Assembly (NCBI RefSeq): GCF_963853665.1
Contig: NZ_OY970459.1
Coordinates: 992,001 to 1,056,000 of the forward strand
Length of the DNA stretch: 64,000 bases
Reading direction: 5' to 3'
Source: Mycobacterium decipiens
GTDB lineage: Bacteria; Actinomycetota; Actinomycetes; Mycobacteriales; Mycobacteriaceae
Part shown: piece by piece, positions 41,240 through 49,295 of the stretch
How positions within the stretch are numbered: the first letter of the stretch is position 1
Layout: every line of letters begins with the position of its first letter
Translations under genes and position numbers: made by a program
Notes under the pieces: generated by a model
Told to the model about the DNA's origin: nothing
Database searches by the model: none
What the model saw: the letters and a program-made list of their open reading frames with translations, nothing else

Positions 41240-42760
41240 CTACTCCATTGTGGGAATGACGAATTCGGCGCCGTCCTTGATGCCGGACGGCCACCGCGAT
41301 GTGACGGTCTTGACCTTTGTGTAGAACTGGATCGACGCCGGGCCGTGCTGGTTGAGGTCGCCGAAGCCGGAGCGCTTCCAGCCGCCGAAGGTGTGGTAGG
41401 CCACCGGAACCGGGATTGGCACGTTGACGCCGACCATGCCCACCTGCACGCGCGAAACGAAGTCGCGGGCGGTGTCGCCGTCGCGGGTGAAGACCGCGAC
41501 GCCATTGCCATACTCGTGCTCCGAGGGCAGCCGCAGTGCCTCTTCGTAGTCGTGGGCGCGCACGATGCACAGCACCGGCCCGAAGATCTCGTCGGTGTAG
41601 ATCGACATGTCGGGGGTCACGTGGTCGAACAGTGTCGGCCCGATGAAGAAGCCGCCCTCAAGATTGGCGTCACCGAACGCGAGGTCGTCGCTGGCGCGCT
41701 CCCGGCCGTCGATGACGATTTCGGCACCGGATTTGGCGCCCTGGTCGATGTAGTCGCGCACCCGCGCCAACGCGGCCTCGGTGACCAGGGGGCCGTAGTC
41801 GGCCTTGGGGTCCAGGCTGTGCCCGACCCGCAGGTTGTTGATCCGCTCCACCAGCCTGGCGCGCAGCCGCTCCGCGGTCTGCTCGCCAACTGGAACCGCG
41901 ACGCTGATCGCCATGCAGCGTTCCCCGGCGCTCCCGTACCCGGCGCCGATCAGCGCGTCGACAGCCTGGTCGAGGTCGGCGTCGGGCATGACGATCATGT
42001 GGTTCTTGGCGCCCCCGAAACATTGCGACCGCTTTCCGGTCGCCGCCGCGGTCGCGTAGATGTACTGGGCGATGTCGGAACTCCCGACAAAGCCGACGGC
42101 CTTGATGTCGGGGTGATTCAGGATGGCGTCGACGGCTTCCTTGTCGCCATGGACGACCTGGAAGACGCCGGGGGGTAGGCCCGCTTCGATGAACAGTTCG
42201 GCCAGCCGCACCGGAACCGACGGGTCGCGCTCGCTTGGCTTGAGCACGAACGCATTCCCACACGCAAGCGCGGGTCCCGCCTTCCACAGCGGGATCATTG
42301 CCGGGAAGTTGAACGGGGTGATGCCCGCGACCACGCCCAGGGGCTGTCTTAGCGAGTAGACGTCGATGCCGGGGCCGGCGCCCTCGGTGTATTCGCCCTT
42401 GAGCAGGTGCGGGATGCCGAGGCAGAACTCGATCACCTCGATGCCGCGTTGGATGTCGCCCTGGGCGTCGGGCAGCGTCTTGCCGTGCTCTTTGGACAGG
42501 AGTTCGGCCAGCTCGTCGGCGTTGTCGTTGACCAGCTCGATGAACCGCATCAACACCCGGGCACGGCGCTGCGGATTCCACGCGGCCCAACCCTTTTGGG
42601 CCTCAGCCGCGGAGGCGACGGCGGCATCGATGTCCGCCTTGCCGGCCATCGGCAACTTCGCCTGAACTTGGCCGGTGTTGGGGTCAAACACGTCGGCGGT
42701 GCGGGTGGACTGACCGGCGGTGCGCTGACCGTCGATGAAATGGGAGATCTGCGGGGTCAT
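41240..42760 (-). CDS. mmsA: Methylmalonate-semialdehyde dehydrogenase (acylating)
   Basis: 506 residues. CoA-dependent oxidation of methylmalonate semialdehyde to propionyl-CoA, joining valine catabolism to the methylcitrate cycle encoded later in the window. Signatures are GVVAGITPFNFPAMIPLW, FVGSSDIAQYI, the MMSDH-specific FGGAKNHMIVMPDAD and catalytic Cys in SAGERCMAISV (C282). First gene of the operon; an 18-bp palindrome lies about 33-50 bp upstream of the start. Confidence 0.95.
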   Translation of the reverse strand: MTPQISHFIDGQRTAGQSTRTADVFDPNTGQVQAKLPMAGKADIDAAVASAAEAQKGWAAWNPQRRARVLMRFIELVNDNADELAELLSKEHGKTLPDAQGDIQRGIEVIEFCLGIPHLLKGEYTEGAGPGIDVYSLRQPLGVVAGITPFNFPAMIPLWKAGPALACGNAFVLKPSERDPSVPVRLAELFIEAGLPPGVFQVVHGDKEAVDAILNHPDIKAVGFVGSSDIAQYIYATAAATGKRSQCFGGAKNHMIVMPDADLDQAVDALIGAGYGSAGERCMAISVAVPVGEQTAERLRARLVERINNLRVGHSLDPKADYGPLVTEAALARVRDYIDQGAKSGAEIVIDGRERASDDLAFGDANLEGGFFIGPTLFDHVTPDMSIYTDEIFGPVLCIVRAHDYEEALRLPSEHEYGNGVAVFTRDGDTARDFVSRVQVGMVGVNVPIPVPVAYHTFGGWKRSGFGDLNQHGPASIQFYTKVKTVTSRWPSGIKDGAEFVIPTME

Positions 42761-42792
42761 GGCCGTCCTCGGGTACGCGAAAACCGGGTTGA

Positions 42793-42810
42793 TACTAGGA
42801 CATCCTAGTA
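42793..42810. promoter_or_regulatory. Palindromic operator upstream of mmsA
   Basis: TACTAGGA-CA-TCCTAGTA, eight-base perfect arms with two-base centre, lies just upstream of the mmsA start. Size and symmetry fit a TetR-family site; the regulator is not encoded nearby. Coordinates may be off by one base. Confidence 0.6.
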
Positions 42811-42917
42811 ACTGGTCCCGGTGCGGGCAACCATCGCCCCGGGTGAGCGTGGGTCCCGCCGCCGTCATCCACAACTTGCGGCGCTGTCAACCTCCCGAGT
42901 CGGCGTGTTGCCTGACG

Positions 42918-43289
42918 TCAAGATGCGCGCGAAGGCGGATTCGTTGCCTCACGTGACCGTGTGCGCTTGTTGACTTGGGCTTTGGTGTGGGGTCCGGCCT
43001 TGCTGGTGGTGATGGTGAGGAGCTGGGCGGTCAGGGCTTGGACCCGGCGCTGGGGGCGGCGGGGATTGATCAGGCAGTAGGTCCGGGTCAGCGCCACGAG
43101 GCGCTCCACAGTCATTGTCGGGTGATCGATCGCGCGATGAAACCCGGTGGTCGCCTTGTCGTGTTTCTTGGACACCTTGGCTCCGTCGCGGACCTTGGAT
43201 ATCAGTTTCTGCTGCGGGTAGACGTAGTTGGTCAGCTTGGACTGCAGCCGCCAGATCGTTGAGTAAGAACAACTCCGCAGCGCTGTCAT
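42918..43289 (-). pseudogene. IS481-like transposase/integrase C-terminal fragment
   Basis: The translation contains LQSKLTNYVYPQQKLISKVR and GAKVSKKHDKATTGFHRAID followed by HPTMTVERLVALTRTYCLIN, the C-terminal part of an rve-type transposase common in mycobacteria. The catalytic DDE domain is missing and the end is ragged. It marks the boundary between the conserved mmsA locus and the accessory region to its right. No inverted repeats were found. Confidence 0.68.
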
Positions 43290-43456
43290 CGCGGTGGTAA
43301 CCGATCGCGATGCCTACCACCGCCCAGTTCTTCTGCTCGACATCACAGCCGCGTCAACACCCCAACCCATCGCCGCGCCTGGTTGCTACCGCTTGTTTGT
43401 GCCACCCCTTACGGCTTCAACCGGAGTCACTGGTGTCGTCCTGAACGGTTATGAGG
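43290..43456. other. Intergenic, no feature recognised
   Basis: Short gap between the transposase relic and the orphan gene. No coding or structural signal stands out. Confidence 0.5.
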
Positions 43457-43978
43457 TCAGGTCCCACCGATGCTGCCGATCGACAGGGCGGTTGGCCGCA
43501 CATCGTTCAGAATTGTGTTAGCGACGTCACAGATTTGCTGTAGGTAGCAGCGGACTTCTTCGCTGAGGGTGAGATCGCTTGGCGGCCAGCGCAGTTCGTG
43601 CCATCCTCTAACTAGACCAACTAGCTGTTGATGCCCGCCGCGGTTGTTGAGCCGCACAACGTACCCGGTCTCTTCAGTCACGCAACCATGGACGTTCAGC
43701 TCGATGCGGGGATCGCCCACGAGCACGGCGGCACTTAGCGCCCGATAGGCTAGGTCCGACACGATCTGCCCAGGGGTTCTATTGCTCCGGGCGCGGAAGA
43801 TGTGTTGCAGTTCATCGCCTTCGACTGCAAGCCAGCCGGCGAACGCATCGTCATCGATGCTGAACGCTCTGGGGGCGCCGTTGGCAATGACCACGAAGGC
43901 CGGTGCGCCGGCGGCGACGCGGGGCGCGGTAGCGAACTTCGCACCGACGTGCCGGCTTAACGACCATTGCATGTTCAT
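43457..43978 (-). CDS. Orphan hypothetical protein
   Basis: 173 residues; no family recognised. N-terminus MNMQWSLSRHVGAKF, a likely alpha/beta core with PAFVVIANGAPRAFSIDDDA and GDPRIELNVHGCVTEET, and a helical tail EEVRCYLQQICDVANTILND. Codon use looks real. A GAGGGGG ribosome site precedes ATG 43978. The DNA around its start is imperfectly repeated about 230 bp to the right, where the similar reading MQWS is not followed by an intact gene. Divergent from the EspR-like operon, so the two may share control. Confidence 0.55.
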   Translation of the reverse strand: MNMQWSLSRHVGAKFATAPRVAAGAPAFVVIANGAPRAFSIDDDAFAGWLAVEGDELQHIFRARSNRTPGQIVSDLAYRALSAAVLVGDPRIELNVHGCVTEETGYVVRLNNRGGHQQLVGLVRGWHELRWPPSDLTLSEEVRCYLQQICDVANTILNDVRPTALSIGSIGGT

Positions 43979-44534
43979 AGCGAGCGAGTCCCCCTCGGTC
44001 TCACCACGGTCCTACTCTACTGAGCTGAAGCCGTCCCCCTGGAGGGCGTTTCGTATCGGCAACGAACGGTAGCGGAGGAGATACGACCTTGGCAATAGAT
44101 CCGGACCTGAACCTGATCATGAACGTTCGCCACCTTGACGAAGGGTGCGCGAGATGTTCCAACGAACGTAGCTCCGCAACCCGCGGTCTCGGCGACCACT
44201 GCATCTCAATAGCGAGCAAGTTCTTCTGAAGCCATGCCCCCTGGAGGGCGTTTCGTATCGGCAACGAACAGTGGCGAAGGAGATACGACCTTGACAATAG
44301 GTCTCGACCCGAACCTGACCATGAGCGGCGCTACCTCGGCGAAATGTGCGACGCGAGGGGCCGGCGGGCGATGAAGACTGGTGCGCGGTGATGGCCTCGT
44401 CCGGGTAGACGGCGATGGCCCGCAGACCCGCCGTTCCTGTGCGGACTCGCGCGTGTTACAACACACTTGGGCTTACAGCCGCACCGCGATGCTGGTTACT
44501 GGGCAGTCAGCCCCTTTCGAACCAAGGTTGGCGC
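43979..44534. other. Intergenic region between divergent genes, holds the repeats
   Basis: About 555 bp separating the orphan gene from the EspR-like operon. Apart from the two repeats it holds two short rightward frames that start at TTG 44089 and TTG 44291 at normal distance from purine-rich sites. They would encode 48 and about 27 residues with a shared DPxLxxM core. Whether they are translated is unknown. Confidence 0.5.
44026..44365. repeat. Imperfect direct repeat, 202-bp offset, two copies
   Basis: Copy 1 begins near 44026 and copy 2 near 44228. A 27-bp block from GGAGGGCGTTTCGTATCGGC is identical at 44041-44067 and 44243-44269 and contains the short inverted repeat TTCGT...ACGAA. ATACGACCTT recurs at 44081 and 44283 behind purine-rich GGAGGAG / GAAGGAG. 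Weaker similarity extends left (CGACCATTGCAT near 43961 and CGACCACTGCAT near 44193). Confidence 0.75.
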
Positions 44535-44993
44535 ATGGGGAGAGTAGTCGTAGGCGTGAGCTTTCAGCGTCGGTTGGACCTGCTGATAGAGACGGTACAT
44601 CCGCCGGGGCGGGGTCCGTACTCGTTGGCCGAGATCGCAAAGGGCACAGCCCGCGACGGCTTCCAGGTGTCGGTCAGCTACTTATCGAACCTACGGCGCG
44701 GAAAGATGAGCAACCCGTCGGTGTCTCATGTGGCCGCGCTGGCGCGATTCTTCGGGGTGTCTCCTGAATTTTTCTTCGAACCGGACGACCGACTCTCTCC
44801 ATCGGCGCGGATAGGGGCGATCAAGGACGACGTACAGGCGTTGGAAGACAAAGATATTCGGGTTATAGCGATGCGCTCGCACGGACTATCGCGGGATAGT
44901 CTGCGCGCGCTCGCTGATCTAGTAGAGCAGTTCCGCCGTCTAGAGGGTTTGGCCACCAACGAGGATGGCGGTGGATGTGGAGAATCGAGCTAG
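44535..44993 (+). CDS. EspR-like XRE-family transcriptional regulator
   Basis: 152 residues from ATG 44535; GTG 44556, giving a start exactly at the conserved SFQRRLDLL, is a good alternative. The helix-turn-helix and flanks follow EspR: LDLLIETVHPPGRGPYSLAEIA, VSVSYLSNLRRGKMSNPS, VAALARFFGVSPEFFF, then a C-terminal dimerisation segment VIAMRSHGLSRDSLRALADL. EspR is a nucleoid-associated regulator of ESX-1 and lipid genes; this paralogue heads a four-gene overlapping operon and is probably its local regulator. Confidence 0.82.
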   Translation: MGRVVVGVSFQRRLDLLIETVHPPGRGPYSLAEIAKGTARDGFQVSVSYLSNLRRGKMSNPSVSHVAALARFFGVSPEFFFEPDDRLSPSARIGAIKDDVQALEDKDIRVIAMRSHGLSRDSLRALADLVEQFRRLEGLATNEDGGGCGESS

Positions 44994-45526
44994 CCGTAAT
45001 GACTACTGAGTGGTGGGAAGCCGGCATGCCGCGGTGGCCATGGTCTCGGACCGCTAGACGGATACATCGCAGCGTCCGCGAGTTGGACCTACCACCGGCA
45101 CCGCAGTTGTCACACGTGGTCGATCGAGTGTCGCTGAGCCGGGGTCGGCAGTTGTCATTAGTACCGTCACATTTGCGTCATCTTGGCCTCTCGGGTGTAT
45201 GGCTTGATATTGGAGATCGTGACTTGATCGCTTACGAGACCGCAGCCAGCAGCTGGACGCAGCGATACATCATCTGCCACGAAATAGGCCACATGATTCT
45301 CGATCACCCACAGCTCAACGTTTCCCAGTTGACGCAACGCCATAGCGCGTATGGCGACCTAGCCGTATGCGGGTCGGCGTATAGCAACGCGATGGAGGCT
45401 GAGGCGGAAGCCGTCGCTCGACTGTTGATTCGACAGCTGACGTACGTATCGGCGATCGACGAACGCGGCACTGACCTGGAGACTGTGCCGGGTCGGATGG
45501 CAGTCACGCTTCAACGCAGCGCATGA
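44975..45526 (+). CDS. ImmA/IrrE-type metallopeptidase
   Basis: 183 residues; overlaps the regulator stop by 19 bases. ATG 44999 is an alternative start. Zinc-protease motif HEIGH at 102-106 (YIICHEIGHMILDHP) and the downstream Glu in AMEAEAEAVARLLI fit the ImmA/IrrE (COG2856) family, which cleaves partner XRE repressors. Pairing with an XRE-type protein in the preceding gene suggests a proteolytic derepression switch. Its stop overlaps the next start (ATGA). Confidence 0.82.
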   Translation: MWRIELAVMTTEWWEAGMPRWPWSRTARRIHRSVRELDLPPAPQLSHVVDRVSLSRGRQLSLVPSHLRHLGLSGVWLDIGDRDLIAYETAASSWTQRYIICHEIGHMILDHPQLNVSQLTQRHSAYGDLAVCGSAYSNAMEAEAEAVARLLIRQLTYVSAIDERGTDLETVPGRMAVTLQRSA

Positions 45527-46689
45527 GCCCCCTTAATCTCGCACAGGCCGCTATTTTTGGCGTGTCGGCGCTGGCCTACCTGCTTGCTGCGACACACGCC
45601 CTGGTCTGGTTTCGCTTCCGGTTGGCTCGCACCACAAATTCCGATGAACGCCGCTATATCCGAAGCGCCGCCAGTGCGCAGTTGACGTTGTTCATCTCGG
45701 GGACGCTCACGTTCGCCTTCGCAGCCGACGTGCCTATCAACGCGTTTACGCGACTCACCCACATTCCACACATCGCGATTCTTTTGTGCCATTGGTGTTC
45801 GCTGGTGTGGGATGCGGCGACGGTACTAGTGGTCTTGCACTGGGTCCGCCCCCGAGGGTTGAACCCGCATTTGGTATGGCTGGTGTCAGCACCTTTCGTT
45901 ATGGCCGCGATCGGATTGGGCGTATTTTTTGTCGCAGACCATCACCCGGGCGGTCCGGTGAACTTTGTGGTGTACCTCGGTCCATCATGGATGGGGACTT
46001 GTTATCTGGCGATCTTCCTAGTTTCGATCTTGGTCGCCCGCATAATCACACTGCGAGTCGTTCGGCGCGAACTCCCTCGCGCGCGTAATCGCATGCTGCG
46101 CCTCGCCTTGATCCTCATCGGATTCGAATCTGTCTTGTTCATCCTCTTTGTCGCCACGCGGACCGGGATACAGGTCGCGGTCATCGGCGGTCAGGAGGCC
46201 GGCGGGATCGACTGGATACCCTGCGCCATGGCTGGCATCGCCAATCTAGTTCTGATAGCCGGATATACCTGCCCGGACTACCCCGCATACCAACATATCT
46301 ATCGTACGGCGAGTGTGCGCTGGAGAAAGTACCGCAGCCTATACCCACTGTGGGCCGATCTCACCGCAAAAATTGCGACTGAAGGTGCGCCGCCGGCGCC
46401 CTGGCGTGACCTCTTTAGCATTGCCAACCTTCCGTTCCGGATCAGCCAGCGCCTTGCAGATATCGATAGTCTCCTCACCTCTGCAAAACACGACGCAAAC
46501 GTTGAACTCGGCAACAACATACTGGTAGATGCGGCCGCTCTACCGACCGCCTTGGACGACGTCTCAGCAGGCTGGGTACCCCGTGACGATTACCTGTGGG
46601 CTCTCGCACGCGCATACTCGGCACGGCGACGGAACCTCGGGCGGCCTTGCCTTCACGATCTACCTGCCATGGCGGGAGTGTGTGAGTGA
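45523..46689 (+). CDS. Seven-helix membrane protein, MAB_1171c-like
   Basis: 388 residues with seven hydrophobic segments in the first 250 (for example AIFGVSALAYLLAATHALVW, SAQLTLFISGTLTFAFA, HIAILLCHWCSLVWDAATVL, WLVSAPFVMAAIGLGVFFV, FLVSILVARIITL, LALILIGFESVLFILFV, IPCAMAGIANLVLIAGYTC) and a cytoplasmic C-terminal domain (about 255-388). The layout resembles actinobacterial proteins annotated as MAB_1171c family putative transporters, often beside XRE regulators. Receptor or transporter activity is not shown. ATGA and GTGA overlaps tie it to both neighbours. Confidence 0.7.
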   Translation: MSPLNLAQAAIFGVSALAYLLAATHALVWFRFRLARTTNSDERRYIRSAASAQLTLFISGTLTFAFAADVPINAFTRLTHIPHIAILLCHWCSLVWDAATVLVVLHWVRPRGLNPHLVWLVSAPFVMAAIGLGVFFVADHHPGGPVNFVVYLGPSWMGTCYLAIFLVSILVARIITLRVVRRELPRARNRMLRLALILIGFESVLFILFVATRTGIQVAVIGGQEAGGIDWIPCAMAGIANLVLIAGYTCPDYPAYQHIYRTASVRWRKYRSLYPLWADLTAKIATEGAPPAPWRDLFSIANLPFRISQRLADIDSLLTSAKHDANVELGNNILVDAAALPTALDDVSAGWVPRDDYLWALARAYSARRRNLGRPCLHDLPAMAGVCE

Positions 46690-47744
46690 CGCGACCACGC
46701 ATCCTGGCTCCACACATCAGCCTTCCCGCCACGGTCCGAAACAACGACTATTACCGGCAGCATTACCCCAAACTGGTTGCCGATAGCGAGAACTCGGCGC
46801 TATCAACCGTATGGACTCCCGACAATTCGCACGAGTTGACCCACTTCGAACGGGCCATGACAGCCTACGTAACCGACCCGTTCCGCGGTACCGTACACCG
46901 GCATACCCTGGCACCCGATGAAACAATCCGCACACACGAAATAGCGGCCGCCACTGCGGCACTCGCCGATGGGGCAATTGCGCCAGATCAGGTGGACTTG
47001 CTGATTTCCGTATCGATGTGGCCCGATCAGCTCGGCTTCGGAAACGGCCTATGGCTGGCCGAACAGCTAGGGTTACGCTGCGCAGCGTGGAATCTAGAGA
47101 CAGCACAATCCGGTGGCTTAGCAGCTCTGCAAGCCGCACATGCCTTCACCGCCAGCGGACTCCACAAAACGGTACTGGTGGTGGTGTCCTGCTCGTATAG
47201 TCGCGCCGTACCCGAATCCAGCACGTTCGCGTGGTTCCTCGGCGACGCCGCCGCCGCTGCGGTCGTCACCACCGAATTCGGCAACCGAGCAGGTGGCGAA
47301 TTGCTCAGCGCCGCCGCCATCAACACAGTGGAATCACAACATGAATTCATCGCCACCCCGACGGATACCCCATACGGCCCGAACCTGGAACTGACGCCCA
47401 GCACAGCGCGCGGCTCCACCCTCCGCAAGTACACTGACTACCACTTATCCTCTGTTATCGACCAAGCTGCCAATCGAGCCGGCTACCAACTGTCCGATAT
47501 CGATTTCTTCGTATTCTCCACGCCGGTGGCGTGGTTCACCGACTTCACAACCCAGCTCCTCAGCATCGATCCAGCCAAGACGATCAACACCTACCCCCAA
47601 TACGCCAACATCGGCCCAGCCCTACCCCTGGTCAACCTGCACGAAGCACTCAACGCAGGACACATCCAGCCCGGCGCCATCGTCCTCATCGCGACCATCG
47701 GCAGCGTCTCCAGCGCAGCAGCCAGCCTCCTACGGTGGAACTGA
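46686..47744 (+). CDS. KAS III-like protein with Gln replacing the catalytic Cys
   Basis: 352 residues, thiolase fold. Alignment by eye with FabH (AAACAGFTYAL, then KYALVV 18 residues on) places Gln 141 of ETAQSGGLAAL at the nucleophile; spacing to KTVLVVVS is exactly conserved. The HQAN His position reads STPV (Ser), while the third residue, Asn, is kept in YANIGPALPL. GDAAAAAVV is intact. Gln in this position turns polyketide ketosynthases into decarboxylases (KSQ). A decarboxylase, acyl-binding sensor or scaffold is possible; standard condensation is not. Confidence 0.78.
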   Translation: MTRPRILAPHISLPATVRNNDYYRQHYPKLVADSENSALSTVWTPDNSHELTHFERAMTAYVTDPFRGTVHRHTLAPDETIRTHEIAAATAALADGAIAPDQVDLLISVSMWPDQLGFGNGLWLAEQLGLRCAAWNLETAQSGGLAALQAAHAFTASGLHKTVLVVVSCSYSRAVPESSTFAWFLGDAAAAAVVTTEFGNRAGGELLSAAAINTVESQHEFIATPTDTPYGPNLELTPSTARGSTLRKYTDYHLSSVIDQAANRAGYQLSDIDFFVFSTPVAWFTDFTTQLLSIDPAKTINTYPQYANIGPALPLVNLHEALNAGHIQPGAIVLIATIGSVSSAAASLLRWN

Positions 47745-47855: not shown

Positions 47856-49295
47856 TCAGGTCGACTTGGCCGCCGGGCGCGCCGTCGAGCCCGCAGGTAG
47901 ATAAGGCAGGTCGGTGCTGAGGTGTGGGTCGAGATGCACCGGGTGGCCGAGGTAGGGGAAGGCGCGTTGTGGGCACGCGGGGCGGTCACAGATCTTGCAG
48001 CCCGCACCGATCGGCACCGCCGCCTCGGTGTCGGGCAGGTCGATACCCACCGAGTAGATCAGCTTCTCGGCGTGGGCCACGTCGCACCCCAGCCCAATGG
48101 CAAACACCTTCTGGGGGCCGAGATAGCGGCTGGACTCGGTTGTGGTGGTCCGGGCGATCCAGAAATAGGTGCGTCCGTCGGGCATCTGAGCTACCTGGGT
48201 AAGGAACTGACCGGGCCGGGAGAAGGCGTGGTGTACCACCCACAGCGGGCAGTTTCCCCCCACCCGGGAGAAGTGAAATGCCGTGGCGGACTGCCGCTTC
48301 GAGATGTTTCCGGCGGCGTCGGTGCGGACGAAGATGAACGGAACTCCGCGCGCGTTGGGACGTTGCAGGGTGGACAGCCGGTGGCAGATGGTTTCAAAGC
48401 CCACCTCGAATCGTCGCGCCAAGTGGTCGATGTCATAGCGCACGCTCTCGGCGGCGTCGAGGAATCTGCGGTAGGGGAGCAGCAGTGCACCGGCGAAGTA
48501 GTTGGCCAGGCCGATTCGGGCGACGCCGCGCGCATCATCGGTGAGTTGGTCGTCGCCGGCGATGATGCCGGCGATCAGCTGGGCCTGGGTGAGCAGGGCG
48601 ATCTGCGTCGCGAGCTGAAATGCACGCTGCCCGGGATGTAGCCACCGGGCCAGGTACAACGTCTTGGTGTCGGGTTGAAATAGCCGCTTGGAGTTGGGAT
48701 TCAAGACGCGGCCATCATCGATGATGACGGTGACGCCCAGCTGGTGGCTGAGGAACTCCGCCAACTGGCCGTCGAGTCCGCCAATCCGCCAACGGTTCTG
48801 ATCGAACAGCCGCTCCGCCGTGACGTCCAGCTCGCCGATGTAGTTCTTCCGATCGTAGAAGAAGTCCCGGACCTCCTCGAACGGCATTGGCTGCTGCGAA
48901 GCCGCCGATGTCTCGACGTTGGCGCGGCCGTGCAGCGCCTCGAGATCGGCGGTGGCGTCGTGCAACCGCCGGTGCAGGTTGACGAGTGTCTGGCCCACCG
49001 CGGGCATCCGGGCGACGAGCTCCGCGATCTGGGCGGCGGTTGCGGGCGCCTCGGCGAGCACCTCGCCTAGGTCGGAGATCAAGCGGGCATCGGAATCCGG
49101 AGCGAAATACTGGGTCGGTAGGCCGAAGCGCTCGGTAAGGGTGAGCAGTACCGGGACGGTGAGCGGGCGCTGGTCGTTCTCAAGCTGGTTGACATAGCTG
49201 GTCGACAAGCCCAAGGCGCGTGCCAACGCCACCTGGGTCAACTCGTGCTCCTCGCGCAACCGCCGCAGCCGAGCACCCGCGAATGTCTTTACCAC
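47856..49295 (-). CDS. prpR: Methylcitrate-cycle regulator PrpR (RamB-like)
   Basis: 479 residues from GTG 49295, which has AGGGTG upstream and gives the family N-terminus [19 protein letters not shown] 49304 is also possible. XRE helix-turn-helix [28 protein letters not shown] (about 18-45), then the IrrE-like/DUF955 middle and the DUF2083 C-terminal domain with [17 protein letters not shown], whose cysteines bind a 4Fe-4S cluster in M. tuberculosis PrpR. It activates prpDC in response to propionyl-CoA and is divergent from prpD here. Confidence 0.92.

What the first reader, a model, noticed from the sequence alone, without database searches (positions are those of the whole stretch)
43979..47744. 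EspR-like regulator, ImmA-type peptidase, seven-helix protein and KSQ-like KAS III in one coupled operon
All four genes overlap their neighbours (19 bp, ATGA, GTGA), which is strong evidence for joint function. XRE-ImmA pairs are known derepression switches; adding a multi-helix membrane protein and a catalytically altered acyl-binding enzyme suggests sensing or export of an acyl metabolite. Upstream repeats look like control elements. The set lies beside a transposase relic, in a region without counterpart in recalled M. tuberculosis.
Basis: partly seen in the sequence, partly recalled or inferred. Interest (0 to 1): 0.8.

Follow-up and report, generated by a model that had tools for sequence, protein, structure and literature searches.

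The report
EspR-like protease switch with membrane receptor
Four overlapping genes in a mycobacterium look like a mobile version of a little-studied bacterial switch, in which a receptor-like membrane protein and a protease probably control an EspR-type DNA-binding protein, with a last gene that changes from genome to genome; the same trio lies beside the well-known regulator EspR in many mycobacteria.

Summary
In detail: four same-strand, overlapping genes encode an EspR-like XRE protein, an ImmA/M78-type protease, a seven-helix membrane protein and a KAS III-like protein, in a low-GC stretch beside a transposase relic. The first three are a recurring module. Of 74 genes of the membrane family (MAB_1171c/DUF6545) from 44 other genomes, 60 abut a protease gene, 51 have an EspR-like gene within 4 kb, 44 both; 65 control loci have neither. 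The trio also sits on plasmids, and at espR itself: 117 of 198 sampled genomes of the genus have that membrane protein, and 29 of the 30 best loci have espR and protease beside it. This genome's own espR lacks both. The fourth gene varies: FAD oxidoreductase, PAP2-like, P450, amidase, amidohydrolase, others, or none. Here it is a KAS III-like protein without catalytic Cys (Gln) and His (Ser), yet the most conserved of the four between the two copies read. The membrane protein is modelled as an N-out seven-helix bundle resembling receptors, which favours sensing over transport. Best reading: a ligand-controlled, ImmR/ImmA-like derepression switch. Cleavage, ligand and regulation are not shown.

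The parts
44535..44993 (+). EspR-like XRE DNA-binding protein (152 aa)
   Evidence: phmmer 3e-21 to PDB EspR chains; 35% identical to the EspR of L237
44975..45526 (+). ImmA/M78-type zinc metallopeptidase (183 aa), HEIGH motif
   Evidence: M78 below cut-off; family profile E 8e-29; catalytic residues invariant in 65 relatives
45523..46689 (+). seven-helix membrane protein (388 aa), distant relative of the MAB_1171c family, helical cytosolic tail
46686..47744 (+). KAS III-like protein with Q141, S278, N308 in place of Cys, His, Asn (352 aa)
   Evidence: PF08541/PF08545; active-site alignment; AF2 model pLDDT 90.7
44035..44125 (+). first copy of upstream direct repeat
44237..44327 (+). second copy of upstream direct repeat, 89% identical; possible operator duplication (inference)
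43457..43978 (-). divergent 173-aa protein without Pfam or NCBIfam match, facing the same repeat region
42880..43450 (-). remnant of a DDE transposase/integrase
   Evidence: 71.5% DNA identity over 79% to an annotated transposase on a M. riyadhense plasmid; no Pfam match

Best explanation
The four genes are a mobile copy of a modular one-operon switch: EspR-type XRE regulator, ImmA/M78 protease, seven-helix MAB_1171c-type membrane protein, and a swappable fourth gene. Proposed working: the XRE protein binds its own upstream region (the duplicated 91-bp repeat is a candidate operator) and represses the operon and perhaps other genes. The membrane protein, N-out and C-in with a receptor-like bundle, senses a small, probably lipid-like molecule and through its cytosolic tail activates or releases the protease. 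The protease cuts the XRE protein and the operon is derepressed. The fourth protein makes, alters, destroys or (here, a KAS III fold without catalytic Cys and His) merely binds the molecule concerned. SHOWN by sequence: gene order, overlaps, homology, recurring linkage of XRE, ImmA and membrane protein, variability of the fourth gene, lost catalytic residues, conservation, occurrence on plasmids and in a prophage-like segment, the same trio at espR. PREDICTED: membrane topology and fold. INFERRED: repression, cleavage, ligand, direction of control, role of the fourth protein, mobility of this copy.
Confidence: 0.6

Rival explanations
1. Signalling by mobile elements: the swappable fourth gene makes or finishes an extracellular signal that the membrane receptor reads, so that plasmid, prophage or island moves or stays silent according to neighbours carrying it, as RapI-PhrI does through ImmA/ImmR on ICEBs1 (recalled).
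For: Trio on plasmid records of Mycobacterium, Nocardia and Rhodococcus, on a 95.7-kb record labelled phage, and in a prophage-like segment; fourth gene P450 in 6 of 8 plasmid loci looked at, a methyltransferase gene within the shown stretch in 7 of 8.
Against: The KAS protein here lacks catalytic Cys and His; the espR-locus trios show no fourth gene in the 3 of 3 tested and lie at a fixed place; no signal is known.
Confidence: 0.3
2. Export or detoxification operon: the membrane protein is a transporter, the fourth gene a modifying enzyme, and XRE-ImmA a substrate-responsive switch for them.
For: NCBI names the family 'putative transporter'; knock-out of MAB_1171c in M. abscessus lowered biofilm mass about 50%, and its authors class it with transporters (passages of PMC8707978).
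Against: No transporter among the 50 rows shown of either structure list (shared helical folds prove no function); two distant relatives carry an HD-type domain.
Confidence: 0.2
3. Regulated anti-phage defence or toxin operon like CapH/CapP-controlled CBASS, with the last two genes as membrane-linked effector.
For: PADLOC capH E 3e-5 for XRE and capP E 7e-6 (also RmrA 7e-7) for the protease; prophage-like location in L030.
Against: No PADLOC match for the membrane or KAS proteins at E 0.01; the trio at espR in 29 of 30 loci checked does not look like a defence island.
Confidence: 0.12
4. Decaying island: KAS is a broken enzyme and the linkage here is chance.
For: Catalytic residues lost; transposase relic; low GC.
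Against: KAS is the most conserved of the four between window and L030 (74% identity, dN/dS 0.065); Gln in 11 of 11 members of the close clade (69% or more identical; 2 are partial); same gene order in L030.
Confidence: 0.04

Closest known systems
ImmR/ImmA of ICEBs1 (recalled; start of the abstract of PMC8960796 seen in the listing)
   Same: XRE repressor beside an M78-type protease, on mobile DNA
   Different: here the XRE protein is EspR-type and the protease overlaps a seven-helix membrane gene
DdrO/IrrE (PprI) of Deinococcus (abstract starts of PMC7907104 and PMC10904395 seen in listings)
   Same: repressor beside the principle of cleavage by an M78-type protease
   Different: trigger there is DNA damage or zinc/redox; DdrO chains match the window XRE only at E 0.13-0.32; no membrane partner known to me
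CapH/CapP of CBASS
   Same: weak profile similarity of both proteins
   Different: membrane and KAS-like genes instead of PADLOC-recognised defence genes
EspR (ESX-1 regulator, nucleoid-associated protein)
   Same: 35-37% identity over nearly the whole length
   Different: paralogue: this genome has its own espR elsewhere, 85% identical to the L237 protein, without protease or membrane gene
MAB_1171c family putative transporter / DUF6545
   Same: same place after ImmA, distant homology
   Different: below both curated cut-offs
KAS III (FabH), PqsBC, and the KAS III-like family beside ThDP enzymes in cyanobacteria and others
   Same: fold, and 35-44% identity to the last
   Different: Cys to Gln and His to Ser/Pro; none of the ThDP, lyase or ligase genes beside it

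Membership tests
XRE-ImmA derepression pair (ImmR/ImmA kind) | XRE gene and M78-type protease gene adjacent in one operon | tested here: met
   relatives
XRE-ImmA derepression pair (ImmR/ImmA kind) | zinc ligands and catalytic Glu of the protease | tested here: met
   HEIGH; H, E, H, E invariant in 65 relatives; Pfam M78 itself below cut-off
XRE-ImmA derepression pair (ImmR/ImmA kind) | protease cleaves the regulator | not testable with these tools
   needs biochemistry
EspR | sequence similarity over HTH and C-terminal parts | tested here: met
   E 3e-21, residues 5-139
EspR | orthologue at the espR locus | tested here: not met
   own espR is elsewhere, with the same flanking genes as in L237
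MAB_1171c family (NF042915) | score over curated cut-off (100 bits) | tested here: not met
   50.4 bits, E 1.7e-13: a distant relative
KAS III | fold and Pfam domains | tested here: met
KAS III | Cys-His-Asn active site | tested here: not met
   Q141, S278, N308
KSQ decarboxylase | Gln for Cys with His kept (recalled) | tested here: not met
   Gln present, His replaced by Ser or Pro in 9 of 9 full-length members of the close clade
GPCR-like seven-helix receptor | seven helices, N outside, C inside | tested here: met
   prediction only: model and Lys+Arg counts 6, 2, 5, 16 in the loops taken as inside against 0, 1, 0, 0
GPCR-like seven-helix receptor | common descent or ligand-driven signalling | tested here: inconclusive
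CapH/CapP | control of a CBASS or other defence operon | tested here: inconclusive
   no PADLOC match at E 0.01 for the three other proteins scanned; other effectors are not excluded

The most novel reading that the evidence does not exclude
Actinobacteria own a widespread receptor-protease-repressor pathway: a GPCR-fold membrane protein directly switches an M78 protease that destroys an EspR-type regulator, with interchangeable enzymes setting the chemical signal; EspR, where it stands alone, is the orphaned output of this pathway, and in this window a KAS III enzyme has become its ligand-binding part.
Probability: 0.3. Interest if true: 0.92.

Novelty: new variant of a known kind. Interest (0 to 1): 0.74.

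Why it matters
EspR is studied as a stand-alone regulator of ESX-1 and a nucleoid-associated protein (recalled). If more than half of the genus encodes a receptor-like membrane protein, and mostly a protease, beside it, the question of what controls EspR becomes directly testable, and species without the partners, as this one, would have a regulator freed from its switch. It would also give the 'putative transporter' family MAB_1171c/DUF6545 a role as sensor, and show an enzyme fold losing its active site while staying under selection inside a regulatory operon.

Tried and rejected
Viral contigs: two scans with KAS and one with the membrane protein confirmed no relative. KAS in phage records: none; window membrane protein in plasmids: none; KAS in plasmids at E 1e-30: 4 records, three cyanobacterial and one Streptomyces, 33-38%. 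A more typical membrane relative, from the Adler record, then found 14 plasmid records and 2 phage records; I looked at 8 of the 14 plasmids. ImmA in phage records: only the two Adler records.

KAS in the genus: the 25 other genomes with a match reach only 26-32% identity over residues 65-351, taken for ordinary KAS III. Order and phylum scans with the KAS profile gave nothing near the window's own score (best other 159 against 530 bits); many of these loci serve as controls.

The first gene caller found ImmA beside only 38 of 74 membrane genes; at two espR loci it had missed an ImmA that tblastn showed, so I changed to six-frame profile search. That search counts ImmA within 1.8 kb upstream; recounted with a tight rule it is 60 of 74 instead of 64. 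The profiles were trained on those loci; the control used the finished profiles at a fixed database size, on 65 loci of together 0.25 Mb against 0.70 Mb. Crude HExxH control: 7 of 456 non-neighbour ORFs.

Fourth gene: classes were assigned with profiles grown from a few seeds; by Pfam only ten proteins were tested, and the two PAP2-like ones tested (L172, L196) and one of two FAD ones (L180) are below the cut-offs. One of the ten, after L230, is a DUF222 protein 94 bp away, not counted. Three 'fourth genes' are second membrane genes (L173, L179, L219).

KAS count: two partial proteins (P0016, P0017) show Gln but lack the other sites; Cys is also lost in three proteins outside the close clade (one Q-S-N, one W-N-N, one S-S-N), and in three loci (two T-H-N, one A-C-N). 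The last protein search, with a wider membrane profile, added only two proteins.

Sigma-70 scan: none. No tRNA in the window. In two relatives the ramB-like and prpD genes stand together without the window's neighbours on the other side within the 14 kb fetched, which fits a breakpoint but does not prove insertion. KSQ decarboxylase, transporter and decay: see above. Literature in the library: EspR with ImmA 0 papers, EspR with IrrE 0, DUF6545 0, MAB_1171c with transporter 1; most subscription papers are not held.
Full report
WHAT IS THERE. Between an aldehyde dehydrogenase gene (frame 41240-42874, - strand; mmsA-like by recall) and a RamB/PrpR-like regulator gene next to prpD (47856 onwards, - strand) lie four + strand genes: XRE 44535-44993, ImmA-like 44975-45526, membrane protein 45523-46689 and KAS III-like 46686-47744. 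The last two junctions are exact 4-bp overlaps; the first overlap depends on the start chosen for ImmA. GC is 0.585-0.604 against 0.64-0.69 outside, and a remnant related to DDE transposases lies at 42880-43450. Two 91-nt repeats lie upstream, found only here in the genome. The window is 992001-1056000 of a single 5.30-Mb contig.

WHERE KAS CAME FROM. The scan with the family alignment gave 80 loci: one Mycobacteriaceae (L030), and 79 from cyanobacteria, myxobacteria and other Deltaproteobacteria, Acidobacteriota and one actinomycete, Lentzea. Clustering of neighbours gives a gene family present in 63 of 80 loci whose representative is a ThDP enzyme, one in 28 whose representative is an AMP-binding ligase, one in 23 whose representative is an aromatic amino acid lyase (Pfam). 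None of the 79 has an EspR-like, ImmA-like or A3-type membrane gene in the fetched flanks at E 1e-4. So KAS probably joined the module late and left enzyme partners behind (inference).

THE SECOND FULL COPY. L030, a metagenome-assembled Mycobacteriaceae genome, has the four genes in the same order: KAS 74-75% identical, membrane 51-53%, ImmA 56-58%; of XRE only residues 96-144 match, at 73%. It lies in a prophage-like segment with integrase, excisionase, exonuclease, primase and anti-repressor matches (ten proteins given to PHROGs). dN/dS between the copies is 0.065 for KAS (dS 2.4), 0.20 for ImmA, 0.36 for XRE; dS of the membrane gene is saturated. Equal contig lengths put KAS and membrane relatives together for 5 of 7 further membrane proteins; this is indirect, but one of these contigs is L030 itself.

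HOW RARE AND HOW COMMON. In the genus the close KAS was found only in this genome among 148, and the A3-type membrane profile hit 2 of 396, this one and a partial, distant match. The wider membrane family occurs in 43 of 246 genomes of the class at E 1e-8. I took all those matches but this genome's, plus one each: 74 genes in 68 loci of 44 genomes. With six-frame profiles 64 of 74 have ImmA upstream on the same strand within 1.8 kb, 51 an EspR-like gene within 4 kb on either strand, 45 both. With a tight rule 60 abut ImmA, 44 of these have the EspR-like gene within 4 kb, and 34 have it upstream on the same strand. The finished profiles hit 0 of 65 control loci.

THE ESPR LOCUS. Three of those loci hold EspR itself (E 2e-69 and 1e-67 to PDB EspR for L237 and L184; L235 94% identical to L237), each with ImmA and the membrane protein beside it. 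A profile of the three membrane proteins finds 117 of 198 genomes of the genus. Of the 30 best loci, 29 have espR (91-100% identical to L237) and ImmA adjacent; the other has ImmA and no espR in a shorter stretch, 3.3 kb against 4.1 kb. The remaining 87 genomes were not checked for neighbours. In this genome the espR locus has the same flanking genes as L237 (a TMEM165-like gene, my label, and a gene whose L237 relative is DUF6474) but no match to ImmA or membrane protein of note. From memory M. tuberculosis has this short order too; not tested here. The library holds no paper with EspR and ImmA, or EspR and IrrE, together.

THE FOURTH GENE. Directly after the membrane gene, 15 of 74 have an FAD-oxidoreductase-like protein and 10 a PAP2-like protein (profiles from a few seeds; an eleventh, L196, by Pfam below the cut-off), 2 amidohydrolases, 1 amidase, 1 alpha/beta hydrolase, 1 MPAB-type oxygenase. 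For the other 43 none of these was recognised. Six of 8 plasmid loci looked at have a cytochrome P450 there, as has the record labelled Mycobacterium phage Adler; the other two have a methyltransferase gene on the opposite strand. In two proteins of distant Actinomycetota the tail matches HD_5 just above the Pfam cut-off, and the locus of one (L183) scores, below cut-off, with a c-di-GMP phosphodiesterase model. Both speak for signalling.

READING. The constant trio is a switch whose parts, by analogy with ImmR/ImmA, DdrO/IrrE and CapH/CapP, are repressor, protease and, new here, a receptor-like membrane protein. The variable fourth gene is likely tied to the molecule sensed. In the window that protein has lost both residues needed for condensation, yet is the best conserved of the four, so I read it as an acyl-binding part rather than an enzyme (inference). 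Knock-out of MAB_1171c lowered biofilm mass in M. abscessus (passages of PMC8707978), which fits a sensor as well as a transporter.

LIMITS. No biochemical step is shown. The receptor-like fold rests on a shallow model and may be convergence. The window membrane protein is a distant member of its family. Counts come from profiles trained on the same loci, and the genomes are a sample.

Noticed in passing
L238-L267, L184, L235, L237: ImmA protease and MAB_1171c-like membrane gene beside the true espR gene; membrane gene in 117 of 198 genomes of the genus, neighbours confirmed in 29 of 30 loci.
   Followed up: partly
L270:4249-5470: This genome's own espR lacks both partner genes; the next gene follows after about 160 bp.
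   Followed up: partly
P0110, P0111, L183:4678-6084: Membrane family members with an HD-type C-terminal domain, which may be where DUF6545 comes from.
   Followed up: partly
L292 (KF981876.1 1-45000): The record labelled Mycobacterium phage Adler is annotated with relaxase, VirD4-like, FtsK/SpoIIIE, PPE and EccD genes in this half, so it may be a conjugative plasmid with a type VII secretion locus rather than a phage.
   Followed up: no
L031-L109: KAS III-like family mostly without the catalytic His, often beside a ThDP enzyme, AMP-binding ligase and aromatic amino acid lyase, in cyanobacteria and Lentzea: a biosynthetic cluster I cannot name.
   Followed up: partly
window 47856-49280: XRE-M78-ScfRs regulator next to prpD, 555 bits against the RamB cut-off of 700, so probably PrpR; the genome has another relative at 690317-691741.
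   Followed up: partly
window 43457-43978: Divergent 173-aa protein without any Pfam, NCBIfam or PADLOC match.
   Followed up: no
L030:12271-13787: Short genes beside the prophage-like copy that look like toxin-antitoxin or PIN-type pairs by eye; not tested.
   Followed up: no
L293-L300: Plasmids of Mycobacterium, Nocardia and Rhodococcus carry the module, with a P450 next in 6 of 8 and a methyltransferase gene within the stretch shown in 7 of 8.
   Followed up: partly
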